IMG/VR virus record: IMGVR_UViG_3300042945_002630
Span: 1 to 44,723 of that record
DNA length: 44,723 bases
Reading direction: 5' to 3' (one strand)
Origin: a virus
The translations under genes and the position numbers were made by a program. Below, in pieces: positions 4,997 through 39,985 of the stretch. The notes under the pieces were generated by a model. The model saw nothing but the letters and a program-made list of their open reading frames with translations, was not told the DNA's origin and searched no databases. The stretch's first letter is position 1. Each line of letters starts with the position of its first letter.

Positions 4997-5046
4997 AGGA
5001 ACCTCCCTAGTCGTTTCTTCTTTTTTAAAAAAATTAAACATAATTA

Positions 5047-5508: not shown

Positions 5509-5798
5509 AGATTCTCCTCTTGTTCAGTAAGAATCACACAATCACTTGTTGGATATGCAACACAAGTCAGAACCCAACCTTCCGCAATCTGGTCATCATC
5601 AAGGAAGGATTGCTCCTCATTATCTACGGTGCCAGAGATGAGTTTTCCTGCACAAGCCGAACAAGCACCTGCTTTACATGAAGAAGGAAGGTCAACACCT
5701 GCTTCCTCTGCTGCTTCAAGAATATATTGATCGTCTTGGCATTGGATTGTGGTTTCAGTTCCATCGGGAGATTGAAGAGTGATATTAAAAACGGTCAT
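5505..5798 (-). CDS. petF: Plant-type [2Fe-2S] ferredoxin
   Basis: A 97-residue soluble electron carrier that takes electrons from photosystem I. The cluster ligands are C41, C46, C49 (CKAGACSAC) and C79 (LTCVAYP), with the exact CX4CX2C spacing of photosynthetic ferredoxins. It could feed phage-relevant reductants or bilin reductases; none of the latter is in the window. The start overlaps the preceding microprotein stop by one base (TGATG). Full length, nothing unusual. Confidence 0.95.
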
Positions 5799-7661: not shown

Positions 7662-7731
7662 AAATTTGTTTTTAGTACTAAACGACATATTGATTAACCG
7701 TGCAAATAGTTGCGGCACAGTTGTATCACGG

Positions 7732-7762: not shown

Positions 7763-8554
7763 TCAAGATTTTTCAGGTGAGGTTATTCTTCCAAGATATG
7801 GATCATAATTCATTAGATCTTCAATTTTTATATTTGATCCATTTTGTTGCCAAAATTGAAGAAGTCCATCATGACTTGACCGATGGAAAATATCAATATG
7901 TTCTGGATGAATTGATGATCCAAGAGCAATTTTATAAAGAAAAATAGGAATAGAAAAAGTATTTCCAGAATTGTATATCAAATCATCTGCAACTGCACGA
8001 GGTTTAACACCATTATCAAGTTTATATTTTTCTCCTCTGATATGATGCTTAATTAATTTTTCTGCATGATGACGAGTAATCATATAGCAAGCAGTGGAGA
8101 AATCATTAACAAATCTTTTATGCAATTGGACATGAAGATTTCCTGTGCAAATAATTGCTAACTGAATTACATCATAATCATAAGGAACCTTAGAATAAAA
8201 ATCGATCCAAGTAAAATCCCAATTTTTCACAATCTGAAGGTCTACATCATCCTCCATAATTATTGCATATGGAGAATTAGAATTTTCATACCAAAATTTA
8301 ATTGCCTTTAAGTGAGATGTAGTGCATCCAATTTCACCTGAGGTCATCATATCGGGATAACGACCAGAGATAATATCACTCAAATCATCATCCCTGCCAT
8401 CATAAGCAGAAATGCGAGTATAGTTTTCAATCTCCCATTCTTTAAATTGGTCTTCCATATACTCTTTTCTATCTGGTTGACCATCAAGGTTCAAGTAATA
8501 TATGGGTCCAATATTTTTAAGTTTATATGCTGATTTGTTTTTTTCCATTATCAT
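7763..8554 (-). CDS. GT25-family glycosyltransferase
   Basis: 263 residues, matching the LPS-type glycosyltransferase family 25. YYLNLDGQPDRK (19-30) is the N-terminal signature, GEIGCTTSHLKA (73-84) the conserved middle block, and MEDDVDL (100-106) the metal/sugar-nucleotide DxD-like motif. The usual role is adding a hexose, often galactose, to lipooligosaccharide. It is the last gene of the ten-gene glycan cassette and overlaps the upstream oxygenase-like gene by 32 bases. Target unknown. Confidence 0.85.
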   Translation of the reverse strand: MIMEKNKSAYKLKNIGPIYYLNLDGQPDRKEYMEDQFKEWEIENYTRISAYDGRDDDLSDIISGRYPDMMTSGEIGCTTSHLKAIKFWYENSNSPYAIIMEDDVDLQIVKNWDFTWIDFYSKVPYDYDVIQLAIICTGNLHVQLHKRFVNDFSTACYMITRHHAEKLIKHHIRGEKYKLDNGVKPRAVADDLIYNSGNTFSIPIFLYKIALGSSIHPEHIDIFHRSSHDGLLQFWQQNGSNIKIEDLMNYDPYLGRITSPEKS

Positions 8555-9062
8555 ATGTATTAAAAAAGAACACTTGTGTCAACCTAGCGTTTTCGGGTGA
8601 ATTTCCAAATCCAGGAATAAAACTTCTATGAAAATTTTTATTTCCCTTAAAAAATACTATTCTATTGTATACATTACCAATTAAAGAATTCAAAGAATAA
8701 TCCTCATCAGTTTCGGGATCAATTTTGACTGGAGTATATATTGCAGTTCCAGATCCAACATTAGCATTTGGTGTTAAATACAAAACTGCAGACCATTCTG
8801 TTTCGTCTTTATGAACCCAACTTTCGGTATCTTCAAAGCAAAGTTGAAAACAAAAACTATCTTGATCATAAGGAAAGAAAATCTCCTTCCCCATTATCTC
8901 TTCAAATTTTTGTTTTATCATTTTTCGATAATCACAATCTGCTTTTAAACTACGTAATCCTGGAAAAATTCCCTGTTTTGGATAATTAATTGATATAGCA
9001 GATGATCTTACTAGATCTGGATTATCTAAAAAATTATCAACTACAATTACAACTGAATCCAT
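8523..9062 (-). CDS. Putative 2OG-Fe(II) oxygenase (DUF6445-like)
   Basis: 179 residues. The iron-binding pattern of 2-oxoglutarate dioxygenases is present in order: H84-x-D86 in WVHKDE, H145 in NFHRSF, and R160 in ARLTQVFFF as the likely 2OG-binding Arg. GTAIY between them fits the jelly-roll. It may hydroxylate a sugar, lipid or protein side chain. It lies inside the glycan cassette, overlapping both neighbours (32 bases and 16 bases), which favours a sugar-related substrate, though that is inference. Confidence 0.65.
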   Translation of the reverse strand: MDSVVIVVDNFLDNPDLVRSSAISINYPKQGIFPGLRSLKADCDYRKMIKQKFEEIMGKEIFFPYDQDSFCFQLCFEDTESWVHKDETEWSAVLYLTPNANVGSGTAIYTPVKIDPETDEDYSLNSLIGNVYNRIVFFKGNKNFHRSFIPGFGNSPENARLTQVFFFNTYDNGKKQISI

Positions 9063-9901
9063 GAATCAAGATATAGATCTTTAGTATCTTTATCGGCATA
9101 AGAAGGTCCAAACCACATCTTTGGTGCAACGACAGTTCCTTTACCATTTTGCAACCAAGCACCCCACCAAGACAATGAGGAATTTGCGATAATTGCACCA
9201 GAACATAAAGACATTAAACAAAGATCAACATAAGGAGTATATGATCCATCTGGATATTTTTCTTCTGGTTCAGAAATTAAAAACCTATCATCAGAAAAAA
9301 TTTCTTGTTCTTTAACCCATTCTGGTGAATCAGAAACAACAATTACAGTTTGATCATCATCAAATTTCTTCAATGCTTCCTCATAATACTCTAATGGTTG
9401 AGGAGGATGTTGCTCAGAGCATTGAGTATAAGACCATTTAAATCCACGAGCATCGACAAGATTTGGATCTCCCCTACGGACATGTAAGAAAATAGGTTTA
9501 TCCAAAGTGGAAATCATCTCTTTACATGGTTCTAAAATTTCATCATAAAATGTAAAATCTTCTCTTATACTATCTGTTATATGAGAAAAATATTTTTCTG
9601 TTTGAAAAAATCCATGTATGCTCACATCATTTGGACACAAATTATGCAAATCTTCATCGTAATGAAATTGCCTTTCTACAACTACTGGTGCAAATCCATT
9701 GTCCAAAAATCCTTTATTGCCACTAGAAACATTTGGCAATTTAAAACATTTATGTAAACTATAGTTATCAATTCTAGACGCAGTGAAAGGTGGTATGCAA
9801 AACTCATACCCCATCTTACTTGCGATTCCCCTCAATGCTGCATATTGAAACATTTGGTTTCCCAAACGACCATTATTGCCAAGTTCATTAAACGCTAACA
9901 T
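9047..9901 (-). CDS. GT11 alpha-1,2-fucosyltransferase-like protein, copy 1
   Basis: 284 residues with the family's three marks: GRLGNQMFQYAA near the N terminus (11-22), HVRRGD (140-145, motif I that binds the GDP-sugar), and NSSLSWWGAW near residue 245. GT11 enzymes move L-fucose from GDP-fucose in alpha-1,2 linkage. No GDP-fucose-making gene is in the window, but GDP-mannose 3,5-epimerase is, so the donor could be GDP-L-galactose (see findings). A paralogue lies one gene upstream. Confidence 0.88.
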   Translation of the reverse strand: MLAFNELGNNGRLGNQMFQYAALRGIASKMGYEFCIPPFTASRIDNYSLHKCFKLPNVSSGNKGFLDNGFAPVVVERQFHYDEDLHNLCPNDVSIHGFFQTEKYFSHITDSIREDFTFYDEILEPCKEMISTLDKPIFLHVRRGDPNLVDARGFKWSYTQCSEQHPPQPLEYYEEALKKFDDDQTVIVVSDSPEWVKEQEIFSDDRFLISEPEEKYPDGSYTPYVDLCLMSLCSGAIIANSSLSWWGAWLQNGKGTVVAPKMWFGPSYADKDTKDLYLDSWIQL

Positions 9902-10706
9902 TCAATTGCTTCCTCCTTTCTTTATAATATTCCTGTTGGTTATAATAGTTAACCAATGTATCAGTATTTTGCTTTCTTATCCATTGCCAAAGATTATGAT
10001 TATCGGAAAACTTTGGATTATGGTAATGGGAATTGAATGTTCTCCCATGCTCAAGATGATAAATTAAATCATTAACCCTACCCATTTTATATCCAAAACT
10101 AGCAAGTCTGTAATAAAATTCGCAGTCTTCTGCTCCCCAGGATATAAAGTTTTCATTCCACATCCCACAATCAATATAAGTAGATCTTTTAATCATTTGT
10201 CCCCAACCAATAGTAGAGGATGCTTTTTGGGAATTTTCAATAAGAATTTTTGGATCAAATTTTGAATTCAAAAATCCCTCATAGACCTCCATGGGATAAT
10301 TCACTGCCCGTTGATATGCTCCACACCCATAAGGATAAATTACATCACAATTCCCCTGAATAATTGCAGAATATGCATGGTGATATGTTGATACTGGGAG
10401 TATCATATCAACATCGTGATTGAAAACAATATCAGAAGATGATTCAATAAGAAGATCATTTAGTATTCTTGTTTTGTGAAAAAAATCATCTTCACTTTCT
10501 TCAAAAATGTGGTTTAAATTTTCAATACCAACATATTTTTTAATTTCAGGTATAGCTCTAAATTTAAAATTTGATCGTTTATCTACTTCCTTTACAATAA
10601 CTTTAGACTCAGGAAAGTGATAAAGAAGATAAGAAACAGAAGTAATTATATTTCTCAATCTATCTTCACTTTCAATTCTACACGGAATTAAAAAATCAAC
10701 TTTCAT
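9888..10706 (-). CDS. GT-A glycosyltransferase (GT2/GT7-like)
   Basis: 272 residues from the ATG chosen here (a TTG two codons earlier is possible). The N terminus MKVDFLIPCRIESEDRLR fits a GT-A Rossmann-like fold, and FNHDVDMIL (about 96-104) holds the DxD metal site. The C-terminal block has GWGQMIKRS and WGAEDCEFYYR, as in the galactosyltransferase (GT7) C-terminal domain that binds acceptor. It is sandwiched between the two GT11 copies and ends inside copy 1's start. Confidence 0.8.
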   Translation of the reverse strand: MKVDFLIPCRIESEDRLRNIITSVSYLLYHFPESKVIVKEVDKRSNFKFRAIPEIKKYVGIENLNHIFEESEDDFFHKTRILNDLLIESSSDIVFNHDVDMILPVSTYHHAYSAIIQGNCDVIYPYGCGAYQRAVNYPMEVYEGFLNSKFDPKILIENSQKASSTIGWGQMIKRSTYIDCGMWNENFISWGAEDCEFYYRLASFGYKMGRVNDLIYHLEHGRTFNSHYHNPKFSDNHNLWQWIRKQNTDTLVNYYNQQEYYKERRKQLNVSV

Positions 10707-10708
10707 CT

Positions 10709-11602
10709 TCAAACCTCTGGAGCAATCTCTGATGGATCATTATAGAGTTCAATCCAACCATCAGGAATTAAATCATCCATAATGTAATGATCATAGGCAG
10801 GTCCAAACCATGGTTTGGGAGCAATAACTTTTTTATTTGGATTATTAATTAGCCAAGCACCCCACCAAGAAAGAGAAGAATTTGCAATAATTGCATCAGA
10901 ACACAAAGTCATCAAACAAAGATCAACATAAGGAATAGAAGCACCATCACGGAACAACTCCTTTGAGTTGTCTGAGAAATGAAATTTATCTCCCTGGAAT
11001 AATGGTTGCTTTTTGCACCAATCAATTACATCAGAAAAAACAATAACTTTATAACTATCGTCAAACTGCTTCAATGCTTCTTCATAGTAATCCATTTTAC
11101 AAAGAGGATGGTATTGCTGAAGCATTTGATAAGACCAACGTTCACCCCTCACTCCAGTTAGATTGGGATTTCCTCTGCGAACATGTAGAAAAACCAATTT
11201 ATCTGTATTAAAGCTTTCAATAAATTCTTTACAGGGGTCTAACCATTCATCTTTAAATGTAAAATCTTGACGAATTTCATCAGAAATATGCTTGAAATAT
11301 TTTTCTGATTGAAAATACCCATCAATATCTACATTATCAGGGCATTCATTAAAAATTTTCTCATTGAAGTGGAATTCCCTCCAAGAAATCATTTGTTTAG
11401 GTTGTTCTCCCTGATTTTTTTCTTGACAGTTAGTTAGTTTAAAACCATCAAAAAGACCATAATTATCACATCTATCTGCACCTTCTGGTGGAATCATCCA
11501 ATCAAATCCACGATTTGCTGCAATGCCTCGAATAGCAGCATACTGGAACATTTGATTACCGAGTCGTCCTGCATTACCAAGACCATTAAATGAAATTGCC
11601 AT
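10709..11602 (-). CDS. GT11 fucosyltransferase-like protein, copy 2
   Basis: 297 residues, clearly paralogous to the copy at 9047-9901: both share GRLGNQMFQYAA, the FQSEKYF/FQTEKYF block, and SSLSWWGAW. In this copy motif I reads HVRRGN (140-145) where the other copy and the family have HVRRGD. The last Asp is normally conserved, so this copy may have altered donor or acceptor use, or lower activity. Same cassette, so both probably modify the same glycan at different positions. Confidence 0.87.
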   Translation of the reverse strand: MAISFNGLGNAGRLGNQMFQYAAIRGIAANRGFDWMIPPEGADRCDNYGLFDGFKLTNCQEKNQGEQPKQMISWREFHFNEKIFNECPDNVDIDGYFQSEKYFKHISDEIRQDFTFKDEWLDPCKEFIESFNTDKLVFLHVRRGNPNLTGVRGERWSYQMLQQYHPLCKMDYYEEALKQFDDSYKVIVFSDVIDWCKKQPLFQGDKFHFSDNSKELFRDGASIPYVDLCLMTLCSDAIIANSSLSWWGAWLINNPNKKVIAPKPWFGPAYDHYIMDDLIPDGWIELYNDPSEIAPEV

Positions 11603-11603
11603 T

Positions 11604-12260
11604 TTACTCCTTACTTGTTTTTACAAAAAGTGCGTCTCCCCAATCGGAGGTATGTTCGAAAGTTTCTACATGCTCGAACCCAAATCCTTTCAGATAATCT
11701 TTGAGTTCATCAAACATTACATTATCAACATAATCTGGATTATTCCAAGTTGCTTCAGTCGTCACATAATTAACATTTTCCAAAACTTTTGTTGCACCCT
11801 TTAATACGAGAAGTTCCGCACCTTGAGTGTCCATATCCAAAAGTTGAAAGTCAGAATAATTAAATTCATTAGACTCAATAAGAGTATCCAACTTTACAGT
11901 TTCAACTTTAATTGTTTCCTTATGCCACTCTTCAAATCTACCTTTTGGTCTAAGTAGAGAAGAGCATCCTTTATTACCAGTCATAAAACCAGCATCTGGT
12001 CCATAGCAAATGTGAAAATCAATCTCCTCACAATCACTATCACTTGCTGCTACACAGAATCCATGAGACTCTACACTTGTTTCTGCTCTGCTTAGTGCGA
12101 TTTCCAACTCCTTAAATACATCTGGATTGGGTTCAACCCAGATGATTTGCTTAGCACCAAGTTTTTCATAATCATAAATTTCTTCACCACGATGAGCACC
12201 AACATGGATTACCCCATCGACTTTAACATTATTTTCCGAAAAATATTTGTATTGACTCAT
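11604..12260 (-). CDS. FkbM-family methyltransferase
   Basis: 218 residues with the FkbM pattern: GVIHVGAHRGEE (15-26, SAM loop), WVEPNPDVF (41-49, acidic residue binding the SAM ribose) and LLDMDTQGAE (about 139-148, typical FkbM motif). These enzymes O-methylate sugars or polyketides. In a phage glycan cassette, the expected job is capping a sugar hydroxyl on LPS or on a virion glycan. It overlaps the upstream GT10 gene by 4 bases (ATGA). Confidence 0.85.
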   Translation of the reverse strand: MSQYKYFSENNVKVDGVIHVGAHRGEEIYDYEKLGAKQIIWVEPNPDVFKELEIALSRAETSVESHGFCVAASDSDCEEIDFHICYGPDAGFMTGNKGCSSLLRPKGRFEEWHKETIKVETVKLDTLIESNEFNYSDFQLLDMDTQGAELLVLKGATKVLENVNYVTTEATWNNPDYVDNVMFDELKDYLKGFGFEHVETFEHTSDWGDALFVKTSKE

Positions 12261-13057
12261 TTAAAATAATTGGTATAGATAAAATCTTCCGCAACAGGAA
12301 GGTTTAAAGAACGTTCAAAATTATCTTTAACTGCATCTATTTTAGAATGATAAAGGTCTTCTGTCAATGAGGAAATATCAAAATCATCATCTAAGAATAT
12401 GATTCCATCTTCATTGAAATACTCAGTAATTCCTTTACATCCGTAAAAAATTGGAATAGTTCCAGCAGCAAAACAATCTGTGATTTTCTCAGTGAAATAA
12501 GTATCATAGACTGCGTTTTCTACTGCAATAGAGAACATATAATCCTTTAGTGCTTCTTCTTTACAAGAAATATCTCGGATACCTCTACCAAACAAATCAA
12601 CTTGGTCCTTGAACTTATTCACAAACTCAAGTCTCTTTATGTGTCCAGGAACCATAGACTTATTTGATGATACCATAGAAACCAATTTGGTCTTCTCAAA
12701 TATCTGTCTGTCTACAACCCAAGGTGCAGCATTGCTGAGTGCGTAGTTAATCTTAGGATACTTCTCGCACAATTCTCTATCACAACTAAAAATACCATCA
12801 ACTCTGGTAGCAGCAAACTCATAATTTTTAATAATCCAATCATAGATTGGTTTAATGATTTGCTTGGATTCCAACAACCAAATATAAGTGGGTTTGATTT
12901 GAACCGTAGAAAATGCTTCCAGAGAACGTTGATTTACATAGAAATTAACTTCTCCAGAACCATCATAAACCCACTCAGTAAACTTAGAAGTGTTTTTATC
13001 TGAAGTAGAAGGAAGAAGAGAATCGTTGCAATAAAGATTAATCTTAAATTTGCTCAT
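12257..13057 (-). CDS. GT10 alpha-1,3/1,4-fucosyltransferase-like protein
   Basis: 266 residues. The C-terminal half has the GT10 signature: YMFSIAVENA (173-182), YFTEKITDCFAAGTIPIFYG (187-206), which forms the GDP-sugar pocket. Family members add L-fucose in alpha-1,3 or 1,4 linkage. With two GT11 genes this makes three GDP-L-fucose-type transferases in one cassette. The N-terminal acceptor half is divergent, as is normal. Its start lies inside the upstream SDR gene's end (14-base overlap). Confidence 0.85.
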   Translation of the reverse strand: MSKFKINLYCNDSLLPSTSDKNTSKFTEWVYDGSGEVNFYVNQRSLEAFSTVQIKPTYIWLLESKQIIKPIYDWIIKNYEFAATRVDGIFSCDRELCEKYPKINYALSNAAPWVVDRQIFEKTKLVSMVSSNKSMVPGHIKRLEFVNKFKDQVDLFGRGIRDISCKEEALKDYMFSIAVENAVYDTYFTEKITDCFAAGTIPIFYGCKGITEYFNEDGIIFLDDDFDISSLTEDLYHSKIDAVKDNFERSLNLPVAEDFIYTNYFK

Positions 13058-13892
13058 TCTTCATTGCCTCAAAGACTTTAGCAATTCCTTGCTCGATAGT
13101 TGTTTTGGGCATCCACCATTTAGTCAAATATGTATCTGGAAGATTTCTTTTATCCATTTGAACAGAATCTTTTTCTTCTGATGGTTGAATCTTCACTGAC
13201 TTATCAATCAAATTAAATTGACCAGAAATAATATTTGCAATATCAAGAATCTTTGTGGAATGGAAACTTGTGATGTGAAGATTATCTTCTGAAGTAAAGT
13301 CATTATAGTTTTCCATAATTGCCTCTAGTGCTTCGCAGCAATCTTCAGCATAAAGAAACTCACGTTGCTCCTGACCATCAGTAAGCATATCAATTACACC
13401 AGTCTCAAATCCTTTACGAATAAAGTCAGTAATAACGTGTGCTTTATCGTGGTCTTTTTCGATGCCATACACATTCCAGAACTTAACAATAAGTCCATTA
13501 AGAGACTTAGTATAAAGTTCTCCAACATTCTTCAGAACTCCATATGGAGAATAACTCATATTGCTCATCTGAGATGATGCAAAAACAAACCTCTTATTGT
13601 ACTTCTTAAGAAGTCCAAATGCATTTGCCATCAGACGTGCATTGTTATCAATGAACTGAAATGTGTGCTGATACTTTTTAAGGTATCTGGAACCACCCAC
13701 ATCAAATGCAAGGAAGAATACAAAGTCAGAATCTTTGATATTATCTTCCAAGTTTTGATTTGGAATAACTGTCATATCCTGTTCTGGTCCATTCACAACA
13801 TCAAATTCATTGACGGTATGACCTTTTCCACGAAGATATTCGGTCAGGTATGCTCCAACCTGACCACTTGAACCTAATACTGAGATTTTCAT
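13044..13892 (-). CDS. NAD(P)-dependent epimerase/dehydratase (extended SDR)
   Basis: 282 residues. The cofactor loop GSSGQVG (7-13), the catalytic SSQMS and YGVLK (YxxxK) patterns, and FWNVYG place it among nucleotide-sugar epimerases and dehydratases. Substrate is not clear. Being adjacent to GDP-mannose 3,5-epimerase, it could reduce or epimerise the same GDP-sugar, or act on a different one. It overlaps the upstream methyltransferase gene by 4 bases. Confidence 0.85.
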   Translation of the reverse strand: MKISVLGSSGQVGAYLTEYLRGKGHTVNEFDVVNGPEQDMTVIPNQNLEDNIKDSDFVFFLAFDVGGSRYLKKYQHTFQFIDNNARLMANAFGLLKKYNKRFVFASSQMSNMSYSPYGVLKNVGELYTKSLNGLIVKFWNVYGIEKDHDKAHVITDFIRKGFETGVIDMLTDGQEQREFLYAEDCCEALEAIMENYNDFTSEDNLHITSFHSTKILDIANIISGQFNLIDKSVKIQPSEEKDSVQMDKRNLPDTYLTKWWMPKTTIEQGIAKVFEAMKNEQI

Positions 13893-14581
13893 TCTAAGCT
13901 ATCTACTATCCAAAGAGTTTGTACGTGTGGGTAAGAATTCCCACTTTGATATAATTTAGTCATAGAGATTCCCCACTGGTCTAGAATCTCTTTATGTGCT
14001 CTGGATTCTCCATCTTTGAATTCTTCAAACCCAGGAGTTCCACCCCAATCATCATACCCAATTAGTGTTCCAGGAACAATCAAATTATTCTCCATCAAAT
14101 AATTAAATGCGTATTTTGTTGGGGAATAAATGTCCAAATCAAAATCAACGTAAAATGCTGGTTTTAAATCTTTTTGTTTTGGGAGAGTTTCCTCAACAAG
14201 TCCAGCAACAACAGATACTTTACTTTGATTATTTTTATTCGTAAAGATAGTTTGAACTTCTTTCTGAATATGATTTGCACAATCATCTGGAGTATCCAAA
14301 CTCATATGCTTAAGAACATTAAATTCATCTGGAAAAATATCTGGATTCCAAGAATCTTGGAAAATGGGTTCTGCAGTTTCTTTTGGCATTCCAGTAAAAA
14401 CATCAAACCCATGGAAAGTATTCACTTCTATTTTGTGTTTATTTAAAATAGAAGCAATTTCTTTCATCGACCCACCATTAAAAACACCAAATTGATAAAC
14501 ATCATAGTTTACCAATTCTTCTTTTTCAAAACTATTATGGTCGTTAACTGCGATATCTAATAAAGAAGTTCTCCAACTCAT
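13889..14581 (-). CDS. TylF/MycF-like sugar O-methyltransferase
   Basis: 230 residues resembling macrocin-type O-methyltransferases: YQFGVFNGGSMKE (29-41, SAM loop), FHGFDVFTGMP, YVDFDLDIYSPT and IGYDDWGG, which in the family carry the metal-binding Asp residues. It would methylate a hydroxyl on a deoxysugar or other hexose. It lies between the two epimerase genes with 4-base overlaps on both sides, so it is coupled to sugar synthesis. Second of two methyltransferases in the cassette. Confidence 0.8.
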   Translation of the reverse strand: MSWRTSLLDIAVNDHNSFEKEELVNYDVYQFGVFNGGSMKEIASILNKHKIEVNTFHGFDVFTGMPKETAEPIFQDSWNPDIFPDEFNVLKHMSLDTPDDCANHIQKEVQTIFTNKNNQSKVSVVAGLVEETLPKQKDLKPAFYVDFDLDIYSPTKYAFNYLMENNLIVPGTLIGYDDWGGTPGFEEFKDGESRAHKEILDQWGISMTKLYQSGNSYPHVQTLWIVDSLE

Positions 14582-15630
14582 GATGCTTTCTTGGCAATTT
14601 GCTCACTAATCCATTCATATGTTTTGCGGATACCTTCTTCAAGAGTCTGTGAATAATCCCAACCAAGTTTTTCACGAATTAGGTCATTATTGGAATTGCG
14701 ACCACGAACTCCAAGTGGTCCTGGAATATGATTCTTTTCGACTTCCTTATTTGAAACTTTAGCAGCAGTATCGACAAGTTGATTAATTGTCACCATTTCT
14801 TCAGAACCAATATTAACGGGTCCCATAAACTCAGAATCCATCATTCGACGGGTTGCTTCGATACATTCATCAATATAGAGGAAAGATCTTGTTTGCTTAC
14901 CATCCCCCCATACTTCAATAGTGCCGCCCTCAGTCGGAAGATATGCCACTTTTCTACAAATCGCAGCAGGAGCCTTTTCTCGTCCACCTTCCCAGGTCCC
15001 CTCTGGTCCAAAGATGTTATGATATCTAGCAACACGTACAGGAATGCCGTAATTCCTATTGTAAGCAAAATATAGACGCTCACTAAAAAGTTTTTCCCAA
15101 CCGTATTCAGAATCTGGATTGGCAGGATAAGCAGAAGACTCCCTACAATCAGGATTATCGGGATCAAGTTGGTTATGCTCAGGATACATGCAAGCAGAAC
15201 CAGAATAGAAAATTTTAGTAGTATTCGTACCGACTCTTTCATTTAATTTACGTTGTTCCTCAAGAACATTCAAATTGATTGATACTGAATTATGCATAAT
15301 ATCTGCATCATTCTCCCCAGTGAAAACAAATCCTGCTCCTCCCATATCAGCAGCAAACTGATAAATTTCATCAAATGCTTGAATATAACGATATGGAACA
15401 TGGTTATAAAAATTGCCAAGTTCTCCTTTATATTCTAGGACTCTACTAACAAAATCTACATCTCTAAGGTCTCCCTGAACAAATTCATTTGCTTCAGTGG
15501 GAGAAAATTCTGGTCTTTTAAGGTCTATACCACGAACCCAATATCCTTCGGAACGTAATCTTTTTACCATATGACTTCCAATAAAGCCACCAGCACCAAG
15601 AACAAGTGCTGTTTTAATGTATTGACTCAT
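14578..15630 (-). CDS. GDP-mannose 3,5-epimerase
   Basis: 350 residues, extended SDR. GAGGFIG (12-18) binds NAD; QFAADMGGAGF and the block HNIFGPEGTWEGGREKAPAA are diagnostic of GDP-mannose 3,5-epimerase. The catalytic residues known for the Arabidopsis enzyme (C145, Y174, K178, K217) are all found shifted by two: C147, Y176, K180, K219. The enzyme turns GDP-D-mannose into GDP-L-galactose (and GDP-L-gulose). It is the first gene of the glycan cassette, so its product is probably the donor or precursor used by the following transferases. A terminator and structured leader lie upstream. Confidence 0.92.
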   Translation of the reverse strand: MSQYIKTALVLGAGGFIGSHMVKRLRSEGYWVRGIDLKRPEFSPTEANEFVQGDLRDVDFVSRVLEYKGELGNFYNHVPYRYIQAFDEIYQFAADMGGAGFVFTGENDADIMHNSVSINLNVLEEQRKLNERVGTNTTKIFYSGSACMYPEHNQLDPDNPDCRESSAYPANPDSEYGWEKLFSERLYFAYNRNYGIPVRVARYHNIFGPEGTWEGGREKAPAAICRKVAYLPTEGGTIEVWGDGKQTRSFLYIDECIEATRRMMDSEFMGPVNIGSEEMVTINQLVDTAAKVSNKEVEKNHIPGPLGVRGRNSNNDLIREKLGWDYSQTLEEGIRKTYEWISEQIAKKAS

Positions 15631-19503: not shown

Positions 19504-20964
19504 TTATCCACCATATAAATCACAAAATGTGTCGGCATCCATAGAACTCATTGCTAGTTCATAGTTGAAATCATAATACTTATTAAGTTCATGAATTAAT
19601 TCAAAATCATTAAAACTTGTTGCAAATTTACCTATTGGATACCCAAGTTGCACTAACCATAACATCCAGTTATATTTACCAAAGATAGTTTCACCAGAAC
19701 TTATATTAATGTGTATATTATTGGTTTTCATCAATTCCAAATAGAAATTTGTCCTTTCATTTAGATTTTTAGTTTTTTCTCTAACAAAATCCCAAAACTT
19801 TCCTTCTTTATTTGTATTAAAATAATGCATAGAAACATAGTCTACAGTTTCATCATATGCAATGGTCATCTTATTATTATATAAAGTTATATCATCTTGA
19901 CTATAAAAAGAAGAATTTAATACTCTATCCAATAATTCGATTCCCATTTGGATAAACTGAAGTCCTGTACTTTCAAGTGGTTCAATAAATCCGGCAGATA
20001 ATCCGATATTTACAACATTAGCATTCCAGAATTTTTCACTGTAGTAAGGTGTCCAGTCAATAACTTTTAAGGATTCTTTTTCTACTCTGTTATCCCAGTA
20101 CTTAACAAAATAATCTTTTGCAGTATCAATATCAGTAATTGATCTATTGAAAACTAATCCACTACCAATTCTACTTTTAACTGGTATTTTCCATATCCAT
20201 CCATGCTCAACTGCATCAGATGCAGTGTACGGATGGAGTTCACTTTTTCTATCTTTATATGGTATATGACCTGCGATTGCAGTATCACAAAATAATCTAT
20301 TCGATAAATCTACTTTTATACTATCATTACTTAATACTTTTTTAAATCCAGTACAATCAATATATAAGTCAGATTTTATTTGTTGATTATTTTTTAGTTT
20401 AATACTTGCAATATATCCATCATTATTTTTTACAACATCAACAACTTCTGAGTTTATAAAAGAAATTTTATCTTGTAATTTTTCTTTTATAAATTTTACA
20501 AGTTTTCCACAATCAATATGTCTGGCAATTGATTTTACAGATTCCAAATTAACTTTTTTATTTGCAATATACAATTCATAATCTGGTAGTCCATAATCAA
20601 CAAAATTTAAGTGCTGAGTATTTGACCAAAGACTCAAATTATTATCATAGTTACTACCAAACTTCGCATAGGAGAATGGATGCCATATATTTTCACCATC
20701 AATCTGCCAATTTTCAAATAATATACCTCCTTTAATCGTGGCATCAATTTCATTAAACCATTCTTTTTCGGAAAATCCACACTTTTCCATAAAAGATAAA
20801 AATGGAATTAGTGTTGCTTCACCAACCCCAACTGGAGAACCATCAAATTTATCAATAACAGTTATATTAACATCTGGGGAACATTTTGAAACTAGATAAG
20901 AAGCAGTCAACCAAGCAGATGTTCCCCCTCCAACAACTGTAATTGATTTTATTGATTTTATCAT
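19504..20964 (-). CDS. Flavin-dependent halogenase (tryptophan-halogenase family)
   Basis: 486 residues. VVGGGTSAWLTA (10-21) binds FAD and VGVGEAT (45-51) is the second conserved flavin block. The halogenase signature WxWxIP is intact (WIWKIP, 256-261). K78 in ATIKGG and E331 in PLESTGL sit where the PrnA catalytic Lys79 and Glu346 are. These enzymes use FADH2, O2 and halide to form hypohalous acid that halogenates a substrate. A viral member, VirX1 from cyanophage Syn10, has been characterised as iodinating a broad set of small molecules. No flavin reductase gene is seen here, so the host must supply FADH2. The natural substrate is unknown. Confidence 0.92.
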   Translation of the reverse strand: MIKSIKSITVVGGGTSAWLTASYLVSKCSPDVNITVIDKFDGSPVGVGEATLIPFLSFMEKCGFSEKEWFNEIDATIKGGILFENWQIDGENIWHPFSYAKFGSNYDNNLSLWSNTQHLNFVDYGLPDYELYIANKKVNLESVKSIARHIDCGKLVKFIKEKLQDKISFINSEVVDVVKNNDGYIASIKLKNNQQIKSDLYIDCTGFKKVLSNDSIKVDLSNRLFCDTAIAGHIPYKDRKSELHPYTASDAVEHGWIWKIPVKSRIGSGLVFNRSITDIDTAKDYFVKYWDNRVEKESLKVIDWTPYYSEKFWNANVVNIGLSAGFIEPLESTGLQFIQMGIELLDRVLNSSFYSQDDITLYNNKMTIAYDETVDYVSMHYFNTNKEGKFWDFVREKTKNLNERTNFYLELMKTNNIHINISSGETIFGKYNWMLWLVQLGYPIGKFATSFNDFELIHELNKYYDFNYELAMSSMDADTFCDLYGG

Positions 20965-20966
20965 AA

Positions 20967-21218
20967 TTATTTAATTTCAAATTCAAGTTTTTTTACTTTT
21001 CTATTTCTTCTAGATTCTTGATAGAGCAAATCTTCTCTGCTTAATACAGTCTTGGGAGAATTGTCCTTTCCAGAAATTATAAGTTCAACTAAAGATAAAT
21101 CCAGAGCAGTAATTTTCTCTCCTGTTATTGTTGTAATATTATCACAACCACAACATTTTGTTTTTATTGGGTGAGACTCCAATTCAATGTTACAATTTTT
21201 ACATCTTATTTTTAGCAT
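20967..21218 (-). CDS. Zinc-ribbon-like small protein (83 aa)
   Basis: Residues 5-25 contain two CxxC-type knuckles (CKNC and CCGC), a likely zinc ribbon. The rest is helical and basic (ESRRNRKVKKLEFEI). I recall this family widely in Synechococcus phages with no known role. GGTGA precedes the chosen ATG; an ATG at 21230 is in frame. Two bases separate it from the halogenase start, so both are probably read from the late-type octamer at 21243-21250. Confidence 0.7.
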   Translation of the reverse strand: MLKIRCKNCNIELESHPIKTKCCGCDNITTITGEKITALDLSLVELIISGKDNSPKTVLSREDLLYQESRRNRKVKKLEFEIK

Positions 21219-21242
21219 TTTATTCACCATATATTAATAAGA

Positions 21243-21250
21243 TATTTATT
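21243..21250 (-). promoter_or_regulatory. Late-type promoter octamer
   Basis: The minus strand reads AATAAATA about 25 bases before the zinc-ribbon start, between that gene and the tRNA. Confidence 0.45.
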
Positions 21251-21259
21251 TCATAAAAA

Positions 21260-21329
21260 GCGGGCAACGGGGATCGAACCCGTGACTACAACTTGGAAGG
21301 ATGGTATGTTACCTCTACACCATGCCCGC
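21260..21329 (-). tRNA. tRNA-Gly (anticodon TCC)
   Basis: A 70-base cloverleaf. The acceptor stem GCGGGCA/TGCCCGC is perfect, the T arm is ACGGG-TTCGATC-CCCGT, and the D arm closes with GTGT/ACAT. The anticodon loop CTTCCAA gives TCC, reading GGA codons. The anticodon stem CCATC/GTTGT has two mismatches (T-T and C-T), unusual but tolerable. CCA is not encoded. GGA is a frequent Gly codon in AT-rich phage genes, which fits its retention. Confidence 0.9.
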
Positions 21330-27190: not shown

Positions 27191-28333
27191 TCAAAGTTGG
27201 AATCCAGCAAATGTATCCGTTTTCAAGTCTTGTTTGATTCCACCAACTACATAACTTTCAACTTCTGTTTCTTGGGGAGCAACCTGAAGACCTTTGGAGG
27301 AAATCCAATGTTCGGTCCAAGGAAGAGGATTATTCTTTGCAGAAATATCGTATAAAGGTTTAATTCCAATTGCTTTCATTCTACGATTTGCAATCCACTC
27401 AACATACTGATGAAGAAGTTTATCATTAAGACCAATCATTGAACCATCTTTAAAGAGATATTGTGCCCATCTCTTTTCCTCATTAACACAATTATCAAAA
27501 GCAGACCTTACCCATTCCTCTTCTTCCTTACAAATTTGTTGCATTTCTGGATCATCTCCTTCACGCCATTTATTGAGGATGTTTTGAGTAATAACAAGGT
27601 GTTGGTTTTCGTCTCGTGCGATGAGAGAGATAATTTTAGCGGATCCTTCCATAAGTTTGAGTTCACCAAACGCAAACGAGCAAGCGAACGAGACATAGAA
27701 CCTGATACCTTCGAGAATATTGACATTGGCAACAGCACGATAAAGTTTTCTTTTTAATTCAATACGATCTTCTCTTGAAGATCCTGCATTTTCTTGTGCA
27801 AACATCCAAGCATTTGATGATCCATACTGTTGTGCAGAGTTAATAAAATCATCATAAGCACCAGTCACAGATGATGCTCTTTCTAAAATATTATCATTAG
27901 ATAATATTGAATCAAAAACTTCAGAAGGATCTGAATAAACATTTTTGATAATATAGGTGTATGAACGAGAGTGAATCATTTCCATGAATTCCCATACGGT
28001 CATACATGCTTCCAATTCAGGGAGTGAGCAGTATGGAATAAATGCCATACCGGGACCACGACCCTGAACAGAATCCAAAAGAATTTGATACTTCAGATTT
28101 GAAGTAAAAATATGCTTCTGTTCAGGACGTAATGTTTGATAATCTGCTCTATCTTTTTGTAATGAAATTTCTTCTGGTCTCCAAAAATAACCAAGTTGTT
28201 GTGTAGTTAATTTTTCAAAAATTGGATATTTATAGGAATCATACCTTTGAACTCCCAAAGGTTGTCCAAAGAACATGGGCTGTTTCTTTGTTTCAACCTC
28301 TTTTGTATTAAAAACGGTCATTCCATCTAACAT
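27191..28333 (-). CDS. nrdB: Ribonucleotide reductase class Ia, beta subunit
   Basis: 380 residues. The beta subunit houses the di-iron/tyrosyl radical that starts ribonucleotide reduction in NrdA. MEMIHSRSYTYI holds the iron ligands and the radical Tyr in the same arrangement as E. coli E115, H118 and Y122; RDENQHLVIT holds the second ExxH pair. Both mark an active class Ia enzyme. GAGG lies upstream of this ATG; one four codons later is possible. It is separated from nrdA by an oxygenase gene, which it overlaps by 7 bases. Confidence 0.95.
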   Translation of the reverse strand: MLDGMTVFNTKEVETKKQPMFFGQPLGVQRYDSYKYPIFEKLTTQQLGYFWRPEEISLQKDRADYQTLRPEQKHIFTSNLKYQILLDSVQGRGPGMAFIPYCSLPELEACMTVWEFMEMIHSRSYTYIIKNVYSDPSEVFDSILSNDNILERASSVTGAYDDFINSAQQYGSSNAWMFAQENAGSSREDRIELKRKLYRAVANVNILEGIRFYVSFACSFAFGELKLMEGSAKIISLIARDENQHLVITQNILNKWREGDDPEMQQICKEEEEWVRSAFDNCVNEEKRWAQYLFKDGSMIGLNDKLLHQYVEWIANRRMKAIGIKPLYDISAKNNPLPWTEHWISSKGLQVAPQETEVESYVVGGIKQDLKTDTFAGFQL

Positions 28334-29019
28334 TTTATTTTGCCTCTTTTGTTGTTGTCCCCAAATCTACCATAATTTTCTATAATAATATTGAAAGCAA
28401 TACTAATTCTTTCCTCTTTAGATTTATTTTCTTCAACTAAATGCCTAAGAGAAGAATGAAATATCAATAATGTACCTTCGGATGGATATACTTCAATTTC
28501 AGCACATAATCCATATGCATTAACATAATTCTCAGAGTACATATTAAATGTTAATCCAAATATATGAGAATTTGGACCATCAAAAACAATAGGAGCATCA
28601 TCATCAATATCATCATTTTCTGGAAGATTTACATATAAAACTCCAGCATAATCACAACCAGGGTGGGTATGAGAAAGATTATAAGCACCTGAAGGGTTAA
28701 TATTAATCCAGCAATTTGGTACAGAAAAAGTAAGTTCTCCAGAGTGATCAAATGATTCATAAAATAAAGATTCTATCATTTTATGGAGATATTCATAAAA
28801 TGATTTATTTTTTTCTTCAAAAAACCATTTAGACTTACTTTGCCATCCACCTCCCCGATTTGATATCAGTCTACCACTAGTATCATTATCCCTTTCATCA
28901 AGACACATTTTTAAAATATCATCTTTTTTATTTGGATAATCATCATCTTTAAATATCCCAAGGGGAGTAGGAAATAATGGGATGAATTTACCTTCTCCTT
29001 TTAATTTTAAATTTTGCAT
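28327..29019 (-). CDS. 2OG-Fe(II) oxygenase-like protein (2OG-FeII_Oxy_5 type)
   Basis: 230 residues. SHTHPGCDYAGVLYVNLP (from residue 116) is the family signature, with an HxH in place of HxD (H117, H119), followed by H193 in LRHLVEE and R204 in EERISIAFN. The pattern is that of a 2-oxoglutarate-using Fe(II) hydroxylase. It lies between nrdA and nrdB with overlaps on both sides, so it is made with ribonucleotide reductase; an oxygen- or iron-linked partner role is conceivable. An upstream TTG is an alternative start. Confidence 0.75.
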   Translation of the reverse strand: MQNLKLKGEGKFIPLFPTPLGIFKDDDYPNKKDDILKMCLDERDNDTSGRLISNRGGGWQSKSKWFFEEKNKSFYEYLHKMIESLFYESFDHSGELTFSVPNCWININPSGAYNLSHTHPGCDYAGVLYVNLPENDDIDDDAPIVFDGPNSHIFGLTFNMYSENYVNAYGLCAEIEVYPSEGTLLIFHSSLRHLVEENKSKEERISIAFNIIIENYGRFGDNNKRGKIKC

Positions 29020-31304
29020 GATTCGCAATCTTCTTCACCAGAATTGAGTATATCATTAATCAAAGATGAAATATCTGACTTTTCATCTTTAACCTCATCT
29101 GTCTTAATATCATATGTGTTTTGGTAATAAGAAGTTTTCCATCCATACTTATATGTTTTTAGGAAATCATTTGCCATAACAGTGACTGGAACTTCATTAT
29201 CTGGATAATTTTCTGGATTATAAGACCAATTTCCAGAAATTGCTTGATCAAAAAACTTTTGCATCACAGCAACCACATTAATATACCCAGTATTATTAGG
29301 CATATCCCACAAAAGCGTATAATTGTTTTTGAGTGTATGATACTGGGGAACAATTTGCTTAAGAGGTCCTTTCTTTGATTTCTTAATGGACAAGAATCCA
29401 CGAGGTGGTTCGATTCCATTAGTTGCGTTTGACACAACGGAACTGCTCTCCGATGGCATCTGTGCGGACAATGTTGAGTGCCTGAGACCGTATTCCAAGA
29501 TAGATGCTCTAAGAGTTTCCCAATCATGTTCCAATTTAATTGAAGTAATTTCATCTACGTCTTTTTTATAAGTATCGATTGGAAGAATTCCATCAGCATA
29601 CTTAGTGCGACCAAAGTATTCGCACTTTCCTTTTTCTTTTGCAATTTGATTAGAAGATTTCAGAAGATAATACTGGAATGCTTCAGAAAGTCCGTGTACC
29701 GCATCCCATGCTTCTTGTGAATCATAGTTGCATCCAAGTTTTGCCAAATAGTGTGCAAGACCAATAAACCCAATACCAAGAGAACGACGTGCTTTGGTTG
29801 ATTTTTCTGCAGCAACAACTGGATATTCTTGGTAGTCTATCAATTCTTCTAGACCACGCACAGAAAGATCACAAAGTTCTTCAAATTCTTCATCAGATTT
29901 GACTTTTCCTACATTAACCGCAGAAAGAATGCAAAGTGCAATCTCCCCATTAGGGTCATCAATGTGCTGCAATGGTTTGGTAGGAAGTGTAATCTCTTGG
30001 CAAAGATTACTCATCCAAACTTTATCTTTAAATGACGAGTGAGAATTGCAATGGTCGATATTCATAATGTAGATACGACCCGTTTCCGCACGTTCCTTAA
30101 GGAGGTCAAGAATAAGTTCTTGCGCCTTAATAGTCTTCTTTTTAATGGACGGATTCTTTTCATATGAAACATAGAGATCGTCAAACTCAGGGAGTCCGAA
30201 AGAATCAGAAAGTCCAGGTACGTCATGGGGACTGAAGAGAGTAATCTCCTCATCTTTAATAAACCTTTCATAGAACAATTTAGAAATTTGAATAGAATAA
30301 TCAAGTTTACGGACTCGATTATCTTCAGTTCCTTTGTTATTCTTAAGAACTAGAATATCTTCTATTTCTTGGTGCCAGATTGGAAAGTGGACAGTTGCTG
30401 ATCCACCTCGGATGCCATTCTGAGTGCAGCATCGGACAGTGCTCTCAAACTTTTTGAGGAAAGGGACAACACCTGTGTGCTGAACTTCTCCACCTCTGAT
30501 TTTAGCATTGATCCCCCTGATGCGACCTGCGTTGATACCGATGCCCGCCCTTTGTGCAACATATCTGCCGATAGCCATATCAGAACTAAAGATGCTATCG
30601 AGGGTGTCATCAGAATCAACAAGAACACAGCTAGCAAATTGTCGAAGTGGAGTTCGCACTCCTGCCATGATAGGTGTGGGAATGTTGATTTTGTGCTTTG
30701 AGATTGCGTCATAGTACCTCTTTACATATGAAAGACGAATTTCTTTTGAGTATTGAGAGAAGATTGTCGCAGCAATCATCATGTACATAAACTGTGGGGT
30801 TTCATATACACTTCCATTGCTTCTATCTTGCACGAGGTACTTATCAACGACCTGACGTAGACCTGCATAAGTGAATAGGTAGTCACGGTTATGATTAATA
30901 TACGAACCAAGTTTATTAATCTCTTCTTCAGAATAATTTGTGAGAATTTCTTTGTCATAAACACCCGCATTTACACACTTTTTAATGTGGTCCAAGAAAG
31001 TTGGATGGTCTTGAATTTTTCCATACAAAGACTTTCTCACAGAAAATAGCAGAAGTCTTGCTGCAACAAATTGATAATTTGGGTTATCCAAATCAATCAA
31101 GTCTGATGCAGAACGAATTAAAATTTCTTGAATTTCCTGAGTTGTAATTCCATCATAAAATTGAATTCCAGACTGCATCTCAACCTGACTTGCTGATACA
31201 CCAGACAAATCCTTGCAAGCCTCGTCAACCATTAGATGAAGTTTATTCAGGTCAAGACTCTCTACGGAACCATTCCTTTTAACTACATTTGTACCGTTGC
31301 TCAT
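29007..31304 (-). CDS. nrdA: Ribonucleotide reductase class Ia, alpha subunit
   Basis: 765 residues. It reduces ribonucleoside diphosphates to deoxy forms. The N terminus has an ATP-cone-like region (VVKRNGSVESLDLNKLH). RAGIGINAGRIRG, FASCVLVDSDD with the active-site Cys, SNLCQEITLP and the NGIEPPRG loop are typical of the family, and the C terminus carries the redox pair CESC. The start ATG overlaps the primase stop (ATGA); an upstream TTG would add four residues. It supplies dNTPs for phage replication from host ribonucleotides, together with the NADPH and ribose from gnd and talC. Confidence 0.96.
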   Translation of the reverse strand: MSNGTNVVKRNGSVESLDLNKLHLMVDEACKDLSGVSASQVEMQSGIQFYDGITTQEIQEILIRSASDLIDLDNPNYQFVAARLLLFSVRKSLYGKIQDHPTFLDHIKKCVNAGVYDKEILTNYSEEEINKLGSYINHNRDYLFTYAGLRQVVDKYLVQDRSNGSVYETPQFMYMMIAATIFSQYSKEIRLSYVKRYYDAISKHKINIPTPIMAGVRTPLRQFASCVLVDSDDTLDSIFSSDMAIGRYVAQRAGIGINAGRIRGINAKIRGGEVQHTGVVPFLKKFESTVRCCTQNGIRGGSATVHFPIWHQEIEDILVLKNNKGTEDNRVRKLDYSIQISKLFYERFIKDEEITLFSPHDVPGLSDSFGLPEFDDLYVSYEKNPSIKKKTIKAQELILDLLKERAETGRIYIMNIDHCNSHSSFKDKVWMSNLCQEITLPTKPLQHIDDPNGEIALCILSAVNVGKVKSDEEFEELCDLSVRGLEELIDYQEYPVVAAEKSTKARRSLGIGFIGLAHYLAKLGCNYDSQEAWDAVHGLSEAFQYYLLKSSNQIAKEKGKCEYFGRTKYADGILPIDTYKKDVDEITSIKLEHDWETLRASILEYGLRHSTLSAQMPSESSSVVSNATNGIEPPRGFLSIKKSKKGPLKQIVPQYHTLKNNYTLLWDMPNNTGYINVVAVMQKFFDQAISGNWSYNPENYPDNEVPVTVMANDFLKTYKYGWKTSYYQNTYDIKTDEVKDEKSDISSLINDILNSGEEDCESCKI

Positions 31305-39154: not shown

Positions 39155-39985
39155 TTAAAAATAATAATTTACTAGTTTGCAAATTTCAAATTTTTTCCAG
39201 ATATCATATGCATCTGCTCTGAGTTCTGGAGGCATTTTATCAATATCCTCAGTTTTTATAGTATAAAAAGATGCCAATGAAAATCTATCATCATCTAAAA
39301 ACCAATCTTTTTTAAAATATGGTTGATGAAATAGAGTTGGTGAATAAACAACTAAGTCATTATATCCCCAAGAAACATAATATTCAAGTTTCCACTCACC
39401 ATCATCATCTGTATTTTCCCACTGATTAATTCTATTGTCAGAATGATTAATTTCATTCATTTGAAAATAATATTGATTAATTTCTTCAATATTCATATCA
39501 ATGATACCTCTTTTTTTCATAAATGTCCAAAAAGAAGTACCACCTTTAAAGTTTTTTGTTAATCCTAAGTTAGAAACTAAATGTGGTCCAATAGGTAAAT
39601 TATATGGTTCATCCATATCGGTATGAGGAGGAATCCGATGAGTATCCATAATCCCAGAAAAGCAATTAGTATATAAACTAATACACTCAAGATTTATTTT
39701 AAAATGTTCAAATAAAGATTTTCTAATGAAAAATGTTAATTTTGGGAAATTTGATGGATTAAATAAAAATGATTTGCCAGGTCTTCCTGTGAATTCTTTT
39801 TCATTTTTAAAGTGTGGAAATGATGCCAATAAACTTGAAAATTCATCAGGATATTTTAAAAAATCTTTAATTACTAAAGAATAAGATTTTTCCCCAGTAC
39901 TCAATACATGTTCATTGATTTCTGGTTTTGTATTATTGACTTCCGAAAATTTAATAAATTTTTCGTCCATCTCTTCAATTTTCAC
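39155..39985 (-). CDS. Putative 2OG-Fe(II) oxygenase (DUF6445-like)
   Basis: 276 residues. H121-x-D123 in IPPHTDMDEPY, GGTSFW, H220 in LFHQPY and R234 in DRFSLASFY form the iron and 2OG pattern in order. It is the second H-x-D oxygenase-like gene in the window (the first is in the glycan cassette). The GTG start has AGGAGG upstream at good distance. It lies between gp41 and mazG. Likely hydroxylates a protein or sugar; target unknown. Confidence 0.65.
   Translation of the reverse strand: MKIEEMDEKFIKFSEVNNTKPEINEHVLSTGEKSYSLVIKDFLKYPDEFSSLLASFPHFKNEKEFTGRPGKSFLFNPSNFPKLTFFIRKSLFEHFKINLECISLYTNCFSGIMDTHRIPPHTDMDEPYNLPIGPHLVSNLGLTKNFKGGTSFWTFMKKRGIIDMNIEEINQYYFQMNEINHSDNRINQWENTDDDGEWKLEYYVSWGYNDLVVYSPTLFHQPYFKKDWFLDDDRFSLASFYTIKTEDIDKMPPELRADAYDIWKKFEICKLVNYYF

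What the first reader, a model, noticed from the sequence alone, without database searches (positions are those of the whole stretch)
19504..21250. Viral flavin-dependent halogenase with an intact active site
Seen: WxWxIP, FAD loops and both catalytic positions (K78 and E331) are intact. A zinc-ribbon protein is coupled upstream and a late-type octamer precedes both. Known: VirX1 of cyanophage Syn10 is an active halogenase with iodination activity. The role of these enzymes in infection is still open; the late octamer hints that it acts late, perhaps on a metabolite, a defence molecule or a quorum signal. The missing flavin reductase is another open point.
Basis: partly seen in the sequence, partly recalled or inferred. 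Interest (0 to 1): 0.75.

Follow-up and report, generated by a model that had tools for sequence, protein, structure and literature searches.

The report
Phage halogenase linked to tail-fibre cassettes
A marine cyanobacterial virus carries an intact halogen-adding enzyme of a virus-dominated type that has not been tested, and its relatives in other viruses usually sit beside tail-fibre, sugar and oxygenase genes, which suggests a checkable role in decorating the virus particle rather than making halogenated tryptophan.

Summary
Window 19504-20964(-) encodes an intact 486-aa variant-A flavin-dependent halogenase (FDH). GxGxxG, WIWKIP, K78 (= PrnA K79) and E331 (= PrnA E346) are present. The AlphaFold model (pLDDT 93.5) matches solved FDHs at Z 37-41, and a non-halogenating monooxygenase at only 25. 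A zinc-ribbon gene lies 2 nt upstream, behind a plausible late octamer.

It is not a VirX1 orthologue (about 30% identity). It belongs to a virus-dominated, untested clade (SH-aLRT 100) and lacks the tryptophan-binding Trp4 motif. The zinc ribbon is not a conserved partner. No flavin reductase was found in 23 phage records.

New lead: other phages' FDHs sit with 2OG/JmjC oxygenases, heptose-sugar genes and Gly-rich tail-fibre genes. In 19 phages, 21 of 34 Gly-rich genes lie within 3 kb of an FDH (1.9 expected). Some contigs carry 4-5 FDHs from 3-4 clades. Among S-RIM44 isolates, the FDH pair and the Gly-rich fibre genes occur together or not at all.

Best reading: a host-FADH2-fed halogenase that does not use free tryptophan and probably decorates a virion protein or attached group. 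In this window the gene sits apart from such a cassette, so the target is inferred.

The parts
19504..20964 (-). Flavin-dependent halogenase, 486 aa, variant A, phage clade 'W'
20914..20931 (-). GxGxxG FAD-binding loop (GGGTSA, residues 12-17)
20731..20733 (-). Catalytic lysine K78 (= PrnA K79)
20182..20199 (-). WxWxIP motif (WIWKIP, residues 256-261)
19963..19989 (-). FxxPxxSxG motif FIEPLESTG (residues 326-334) with catalytic E331 (= PrnA E346) and halide loop S-T-G
20967..21230 (-). Zinc-ribbon protein (phrog_8074), 2 nt upstream of the FDH; probably co-transcribed, not a conserved partner
21243..21250 (-). Late-promoter-like octamer AATAAATA
21259..21329 (-). tRNA-Gly(TCC), directly upstream of the unit; S-PM2 and Syn1 also have a tRNA-Gly of this codon next to their FDH
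8523..9062 (-). DUF6445 protein with HxD..H..R (2OG-oxygenase-like), the family that directly follows the FDH in several related loci
28327..29028 (-). 2OG-Fe(II) oxygenase (PF13759/TIGR02466/phrog_81) between nrdA and nrdB; candidate co-modifier
39155..39985 (-). Second DUF6445-like protein (E 5.9e-5, just under the Pfam cut-off)
7763..15630 (-). Glycan island: GT25, DUF6445, GT11-like genes, FkbM and TylF methyltransferases, GT10, nucleotide-sugar epimerases

Best explanation
The gene encodes a working FADH2- and O2-dependent halogenase. Step 1 (inferred): the host supplies FADH2, because no flavin reductase was found in this phage record or its relatives. Step 2 (inferred from intact residues and fold): flavin hydroperoxide oxidises chloride, bromide or iodide held by the S332-T333-G334 loop, and the hypohalite passes to K78 and is delivered, with E331, to an electron-rich aromatic ring. 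Step 3 (shown by motif, supported by known FDHs): the ring is unlikely to be free tryptophan, because the Trp4 lid motif is absent. Step 4 (inferred from relatives' gene neighbourhoods): the ring most likely belongs to a virion component, an aromatic side chain of a tail-fibre or adhesin protein or a group attached to it. FDHs of this clade would work in trans with 2OG/JmjC oxygenases and sugar-nucleotide enzymes as a late particle-decoration set. In this window the FDH sits apart from such a cassette, so its target would be encoded elsewhere in the genome. Approximate confidences: halogenase chemistry 0.85; not free tryptophan 0.8; virion-associated target 0.45.
For: Motifs: K in 166 of 166 and E in 164 of 166 aligned FDHs (165 fetched sequences plus PrnA); Trp4 motif in none of the fetched ones. 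Fold: Z 37-41 to solved variant-A FDHs including the peptide halogenase MibH (36.9), against 24.7 for the monooxygenase PqsL. BrvH, which lacks Trp4, does not take free Trp, and MibH halogenates Trp within a peptide (PMC8269204). Context in 19 complete phages: Gly-rich tail-fibre-like genes, 21 of 34 within 3 kb of an FDH against 1.9 expected, none of 20,000 circular shifts as high; 2OG genes, 48 of 205 within 8 kb against 23.2, P 0.00025. Window-clade loci with full context: 27 of 38 have a 2OG gene, 22 sugar genes and 16 Gly-rich genes within 6 ORFs. About a dozen loci carry 4-5 FDHs from 3-4 clades, and those whose gene order is listed lie beside tail-fibre-like genes. The cassette kinase matches HldE at E 6e-83 and the epimerase the heptose epimerase model at 5e-64, both under NCBI's cut-offs for naming. 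S-RIM44: FDH pair and Gly-rich fibres are found in the same isolates; the site between the giant tail gene and gp13 differs between two isolates while the downstream flank is 94.8% identical. JmjC_2, a fold that includes protein hydroxylases (own knowledge), is in that cassette.
Against: The window's FDH has no 2OG, Gly-rich or sugar gene within 6 ORFs, the only one of 38 full-context loci with none, and the 44.7-kb record has no Gly-rich gene (the record may be a fragment). In phages whose FDH sits outside the tail module, 2OG clustering is not significant (8 against 6.4). Phage Sf-FS3 has the Gly-rich, carbamoyl, heptose and 2OG cassette without an FDH in it, so an FDH is not required. Linkage can reflect module exchange rather than a shared substrate. 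The phages compared are related, so the P values overstate independence. No activity or halogenated product was measured.
Confidence: 0.48

Rival explanations
1. It halogenates a small host or phage metabolite (an indole, phenol, pigment precursor or signal) during infection, as first suggested.
For: VirX1 accepts many small aromatics (PMC8407142). The window's FDH sits among auxiliary metabolic genes (talC, gnd, nrdAB), in the position type of P-SSM2, S-PM2 and Syn1.
Against: The clade is mostly found beside tail-fibre, 2OG and sugar genes. No biosynthetic partner genes were recognised near it. Broad in vitro scope does not name a natural substrate.
Confidence: 0.25
2. It modifies a surface glycan or outer-membrane component of the infected host, together with the window's glycan island and porin, for example to block superinfection.
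For: The same window carries a glycan island (7.8-15.6 kb) that includes a DUF6445 oxygenase-like gene, and an OprB/SLH porin. The bacterial clade member lies among glycosyltransferases and an epimerase. Other bacterial FDHs lie beside TonB receptors, SapC and JmjC genes.
Against: Sugars are poor substrates for electrophilic halogenation; an aromatic acceptor would be needed. The island is 4 kb away and separated by talC and gnd.
Confidence: 0.13
3. It is a tryptophan halogenase that makes chlorotryptophan for pyrrolnitrin-like antibiotic protection of the host.
For: Database names, and the proposal repeated for cyanophages (PMC2984593, PMC9964418). PrnA is the best-scoring solved relative.
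Against: The Trp4 motif is absent. No prnB, prnC or prnD-like genes were recognised in the ORFs listed and annotated here, though no dedicated search was made.
Confidence: 0.05
4. It no longer halogenates: a monooxygenase, an NADPH/FAD oxidase or a decaying gene.
For: Two relatives in another clade (S-PM2, Syn1) have the catalytic Glu replaced by Gln, reported to inactivate an FDH (PMC8407142), so drift happens in cyanophages.
Against: This protein keeps K, E, S, T, G and WxWxIP. Its fold is far closer to FDHs than to PqsL. Contigs from different samples encode the same protein.
Confidence: 0.09

Closest known systems
VirX1 of cyanophage Syn10 (PDB 6QGM; CPUG_00131 by length and match)
   Same: Variant-A phage FDH, same catalytic residues, no Trp4 motif; gene lies beside a second FDH, between tail genes and a run of small genes
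   Different: About 30% identity; separate clade; VirX1 is 530 aa, the window protein 486 aa; halide preference of the window enzyme unknown
PrnA tryptophan 7-halogenase
   Same: Fold (Z 40), K79/E346 equivalents, WxWKIP, ESTG
   Different: 28% identity; the window protein lacks the Trp4 lid motif that positions free tryptophan; no pyrrolnitrin pathway seen
BrvH / Xcc4156 / MibH (group C, non-tryptophan FDHs)
   Same: No Trp4 motif; best structural match is Xcc4156 (Z 41.5); MibH shows that an FDH can act on a peptide
   Different: 22-24% identity; bacterial FDHs sampled here sit beside TonB receptors, SapC and JmjC genes rather than phage tail genes
S-SSM7 / S-SSM6a tryptophan halogenase (T4-GC 212)
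   Same: Same clade (38.6% identity), cyanophage
   Different: Lies between Gly-rich, carbamoyltransferase and heptose genes next to the neck genes, not in the nrd/talC region

Membership tests
Variant-A flavin-dependent halogenase (PF04820) | Profile match over the curated cut-off along nearly the whole protein | tested here: met
   E 1e-88, 298 bits against 21, residues 8-442
Variant-A flavin-dependent halogenase (PF04820) | GxGxxG, WxWxIP and FxxPxxSxG motifs | tested here: met
Variant-A flavin-dependent halogenase (PF04820) | Catalytic Lys (PrnA K79) and Glu (PrnA E346) | tested here: met
   K78, E331 in the same alignment columns
Variant-A flavin-dependent halogenase (PF04820) | FDH fold | tested here: met
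   pLDDT 93.5; Z 37-41
Variant-A flavin-dependent halogenase (PF04820) | Halogenation activity with FADH2, O2 and halide | not testable with these tools
   needs purified protein
Tryptophan halogenases (groups A and B) | Trp4 motif that binds free tryptophan | tested here: not met
   regular-expression search of the full-length FDHs, none found; motif from PMC8269204
VirX1 clade | Phylogenetic position with VirX1 | tested here: not met
   window in clade W (100), VirX1 in clade V (100)
VirX1 clade | Preference for iodide, open active site | not testable with these tools
   no assay; active-site volume not measured
Tail-fibre/2OG/sugar cassette FDHs | Same FDH clade as cassette members | tested here: met
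   nearest rows L035, L039, L043, L037/L038
Tail-fibre/2OG/sugar cassette FDHs | Cassette genes within 6 ORFs | tested here: not met
   none near the window gene; DUF6445 and 2OG genes are elsewhere in the window

The most novel reading that the evidence does not exclude
Marine phages post-translationally halogenate and hydroxylate their own receptor-binding tail fibres, using sets of up to five FDHs from several clades plus 2OG/JmjC oxygenases that move with the fibre genes; the window enzyme is a stray member of this set acting in trans.
Probability: 0.35. Interest if true: 0.9.

Novelty: new variant of a known kind. Interest (0 to 1): 0.6.

Why it matters
The role of viral halogenases has been open since prnA was first listed in cyanophages; published guesses are antibiotic protection or altered metabolites. 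The neighbourhood statistics and the S-RIM44 isolates give a concrete test: look for halogenated and hydroxylated residues in virions with and without the cassette. A positive result would be a new kind of virus particle modification, could explain why so many cyanophages carry 2OG oxygenases, and would yield halogenases acting on proteins.

Tried and rejected
VirX1 orthology: rejected by identity and tree. Zinc ribbon as obligate partner: rejected, the family is widespread and usually distant from or without an FDH. Phage-encoded flavin reductase: no PF01613 or PF00970 match in 23 records; other reductase families were not searched. Tryptophan halogenase proper: Trp4 absent. Defence protein: no PADLOC match for the FDH. 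Clustering of 2OG genes for FDHs outside the tail module: not significant. Trp/Tyr enrichment as a mark of the substrate: mixed; one Gly-rich family is rich in Trp (3.4%) and Cys (10%), the other two are not. Literature searches for a link between phage FDHs and tail fibres or hydroxylases found none in the held library; the VirX1 paper itself was not held.

Full report
WHAT IS THERE. The window is a 44.7-kb IMG/VR virus record with T4-like cyanophage genes (nrdAB, talC, gnd, RecA/UvsX-like, DnaB-like, family B polymerase). The ORF at 19504-20964(-) encodes 486 aa without interruption. It matches PF04820 at E 1e-88 and PHROG 2928 at 1.5e-103. Three longer contigs in other IMG/VR samples carry the identical protein and are at least 99.7% identical to the window; a fourth, shorter contig covers residues 2-382 identically and is 92-99% identical in the stretches that align.

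ACTIVE SITE. WIWKIP, FIEPLESTG and GGGTSAW are intact. The lysine is invariant in the set; the glutamate is replaced only in S-PM2 and Syn1 (Gln), whose FDHs belong to another clade. The Trp4 motif that binds free tryptophan in groups A and B (PMC8269204) is absent from all fetched FDHs. That paper reports that BrvH, which lacks it, does not take tryptophan, and that MibH acts on a tryptophan-bearing lanthipeptide.

FOLD. AlphaFold2 on a 52-row alignment gave pLDDT 93.5 and pTM 0.92. Second-look structural alignment gave Z 41.5 to Xcc4156, 41.3 to PyrH, 40.4 to PrnA, 37.3 to VirX1 and 36.9 to MibH. The monooxygenase PqsL scored 24.7.

FAMILY. The window FDH is 29-30% identical to VirX1 and 38.6% to S-SSM7. 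The matching scan of 84,980 bacterial and archaeal species genomes returned two Alcaligenaceae contigs, with restrictive seed patterns. In 274 genomes of that class the only strong match was the same genome (634 bits; next 271). Trees place the window in a clade (W) with SH-aLRT 100 and a long stem, apart from the VirX1 clade (V, 100), two further phage clades (S, M) and the sampled bacterial FDHs. One Alcaligenaceae FDH nests inside W, in a bacterial context with MbtH, glycosyltransferases, an epimerase and a 2OG gene.

UPSTREAM UNIT. The zinc-ribbon gene (20967-21230) ends 2 nt before the FDH, so co-transcription is likely. Its family (phrog_8074, unknown function) matches in 90 phage records. 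Among loci held here it abuts the FDH only in contigs of this same virus. I therefore treat it as a neighbour, not a partner. The octamer AATAAATA at 21243-21250 belongs to a motif that is concentrated upstream of genes in this window, so a late promoter is plausible. A tRNA-Gly(TCC) lies directly upstream. S-PM2 has the zinc ribbon, the FDH and this tRNA within about 3.2 kb, and the nrd-side placement recalls P-SSM2 and S-PM2, whose FDHs belong to other clades.

REDUCTASE. PF01613 and PF00970 gave no match in 23 records, of which 19 are whole phage genomes, while both matched Synechococcus elongatus among the controls. FADH2 probably comes from the host. Other reductase families were not searched.

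NEIGHBOURHOOD OF RELATIVES. Syn10 (VirX1), S-RIM44, P-TIM40, P-RSM6, S-WAM1, Sf-FP1, Sf-FR1, Sf-CH11 and S-CREM1 carry their FDHs between tail or structural genes and a run of small genes, several of them annotated or identified as 2OG oxygenases. S-SRM01 has its FDH near a tail fibre and next to a gp37-gp38 adhesin gene. HTVC008M has it between a PhyH oxygenase and the large terminase. About a dozen IMG/VR loci carry four or five FDHs from three or four clades, with 2OG-like genes; those whose gene order is listed lie next to several Gly-rich tail-fibre-like genes. Gly-rich families match PF21722 and, for one, PHROG tail-fibre families. A second arrangement, closest to the window's own protein, has Gly-rich genes, a NodU-like carbamoyltransferase, the FDH, DUF6445 genes, an HldE-like kinase/nucleotidyltransferase, a cupin and an HldD-like epimerase.

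STATISTICS. In 19 complete phages, 21 of 34 Gly-rich genes lie within 3 kb of an FDH; circular shifts give 1.9 on average and none of 20,000 reached 21. For 2OG genes, 48 of 205 lie within 8 kb against 23.2 (P 0.00025). The 2OG effect comes from phages with the tail-side arrangement (40 against 16.8); for the others it is absent (8 against 6.4). The phages are related and the PF13640 match list was cut by the tool, so these values are indicative. The split into the two groups was made after seeing the gene orders. For window-clade loci with at least four ORFs on both sides, 27 of 38 have a 2OG gene, 22 a sugar gene and 16 a Gly-rich gene within six ORFs; the window is the only one with none.

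A NATURAL COMPARISON. Isolates of S-RIM44 differ. Four (KX349291, 293, 294, 296) have an FDH pair at about 106 kb and the Gly-rich fibre protein; four (KX349292, 295, 297, KU594607) lack both. In KX349294 the stretch between the giant tail gene and gp13 holds three Gly-rich genes, two FDHs and six enzymes that match 2OG, DUF6445 or JmjC families or the HxD..H..R pattern. In KX349292 the same place holds a different putative fibre gene and one 2OG gene. The downstream flank is 94.8% identical and the upstream tail gene only 65-70%, so a tail module was probably exchanged as a unit. Only these two isolates were inspected gene by gene.

LIMITS. Sf-FS3 has the S-SSM7-type cassette with no FDH in it, so the FDH is optional. 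Linkage is not proof of a shared substrate. The window's own FDH is displaced from any such cassette. Its record holds two DUF6445-like genes (8523-9062; 39155-39985, just under the cut-off) and one 2OG gene (28327-29028), and no Gly-rich gene, but it may be a fragment.

COMPARISON WITH WHAT IS KNOWN. FDHs in cyanophages are known (PMC3037559, PMC2984593, PMC10452541), and proposed roles are antibiotic protection or altered metabolites (PMC2984593, PMC9964418, PMC10452541). The 2OG oxygenases have been explained as modulators of 2-oxoglutarate and NtcA (PMC3037559). I found no paper in the held library that ties phage FDHs to tail-fibre modules, but most subscription papers, including the VirX1 paper, are not held.

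VERDICT. Observation confirmed; interpretation partly supported. The enzyme is a new variant of a known kind. The most useful outcome is the testable link between phage halogenases and tail-fibre decoration, which for this particular gene remains an inference from its relatives.

Noticed in passing
window 6195-7718 (-): A phage-encoded OprB/SLH porin (cyanobacterial type), next to the glycan island; 70.9% identical to a porin of phage S-SRM01, with only partial matches in S-CREM1 and S-PM2.
   Followed up: partly
L006:7441-8916 (S-PM2) and L022:7004-8440 (Syn1): These FDHs have the catalytic Glu replaced by Gln and A-T-S in place of S-T-G; a Glu-to-Gln change is reported to inactivate an FDH, so they may not halogenate.
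   Followed up: no
L002:7450-8004; L013:8042-8638 and similar: Genes annotated denV or matching PHROG 'DNA endonuclease V' in these cassettes look like 2OG oxygenases: the S-SSM7 'denV' next to its FDH matches PF13640.
   Followed up: partly
window 8523-9062; phrog_1644: PHROG 1644, named 'minor coat protein', is DUF6445 with an HxD..H..R pattern, so it is more likely an oxygenase-like enzyme.
   Followed up: partly
L117-L139: Bacterial FDHs sampled in one class often sit beside TonB-dependent receptors, SapC, Cupin_8/JmjC or 2OG genes, a parallel to the phage tail cassettes.
   Followed up: partly
L002:365-1153, L035:2635-4227, L059:1955-2803: One Gly-rich family next to window-clade FDHs is extraordinarily rich in Cys (10%) and Trp (3.4%).
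   Followed up: partly
L048, L052, L053, L057, L084: Single viral loci with five halogenase genes from several clades, interleaved with 2OG-like genes.
   Followed up: partly
window 5505-5798 and 4469-5041 (-): ORFs that read as a plant-type [2Fe-2S] ferredoxin and a peroxiredoxin (identified by eye from the translation).
   Followed up: no
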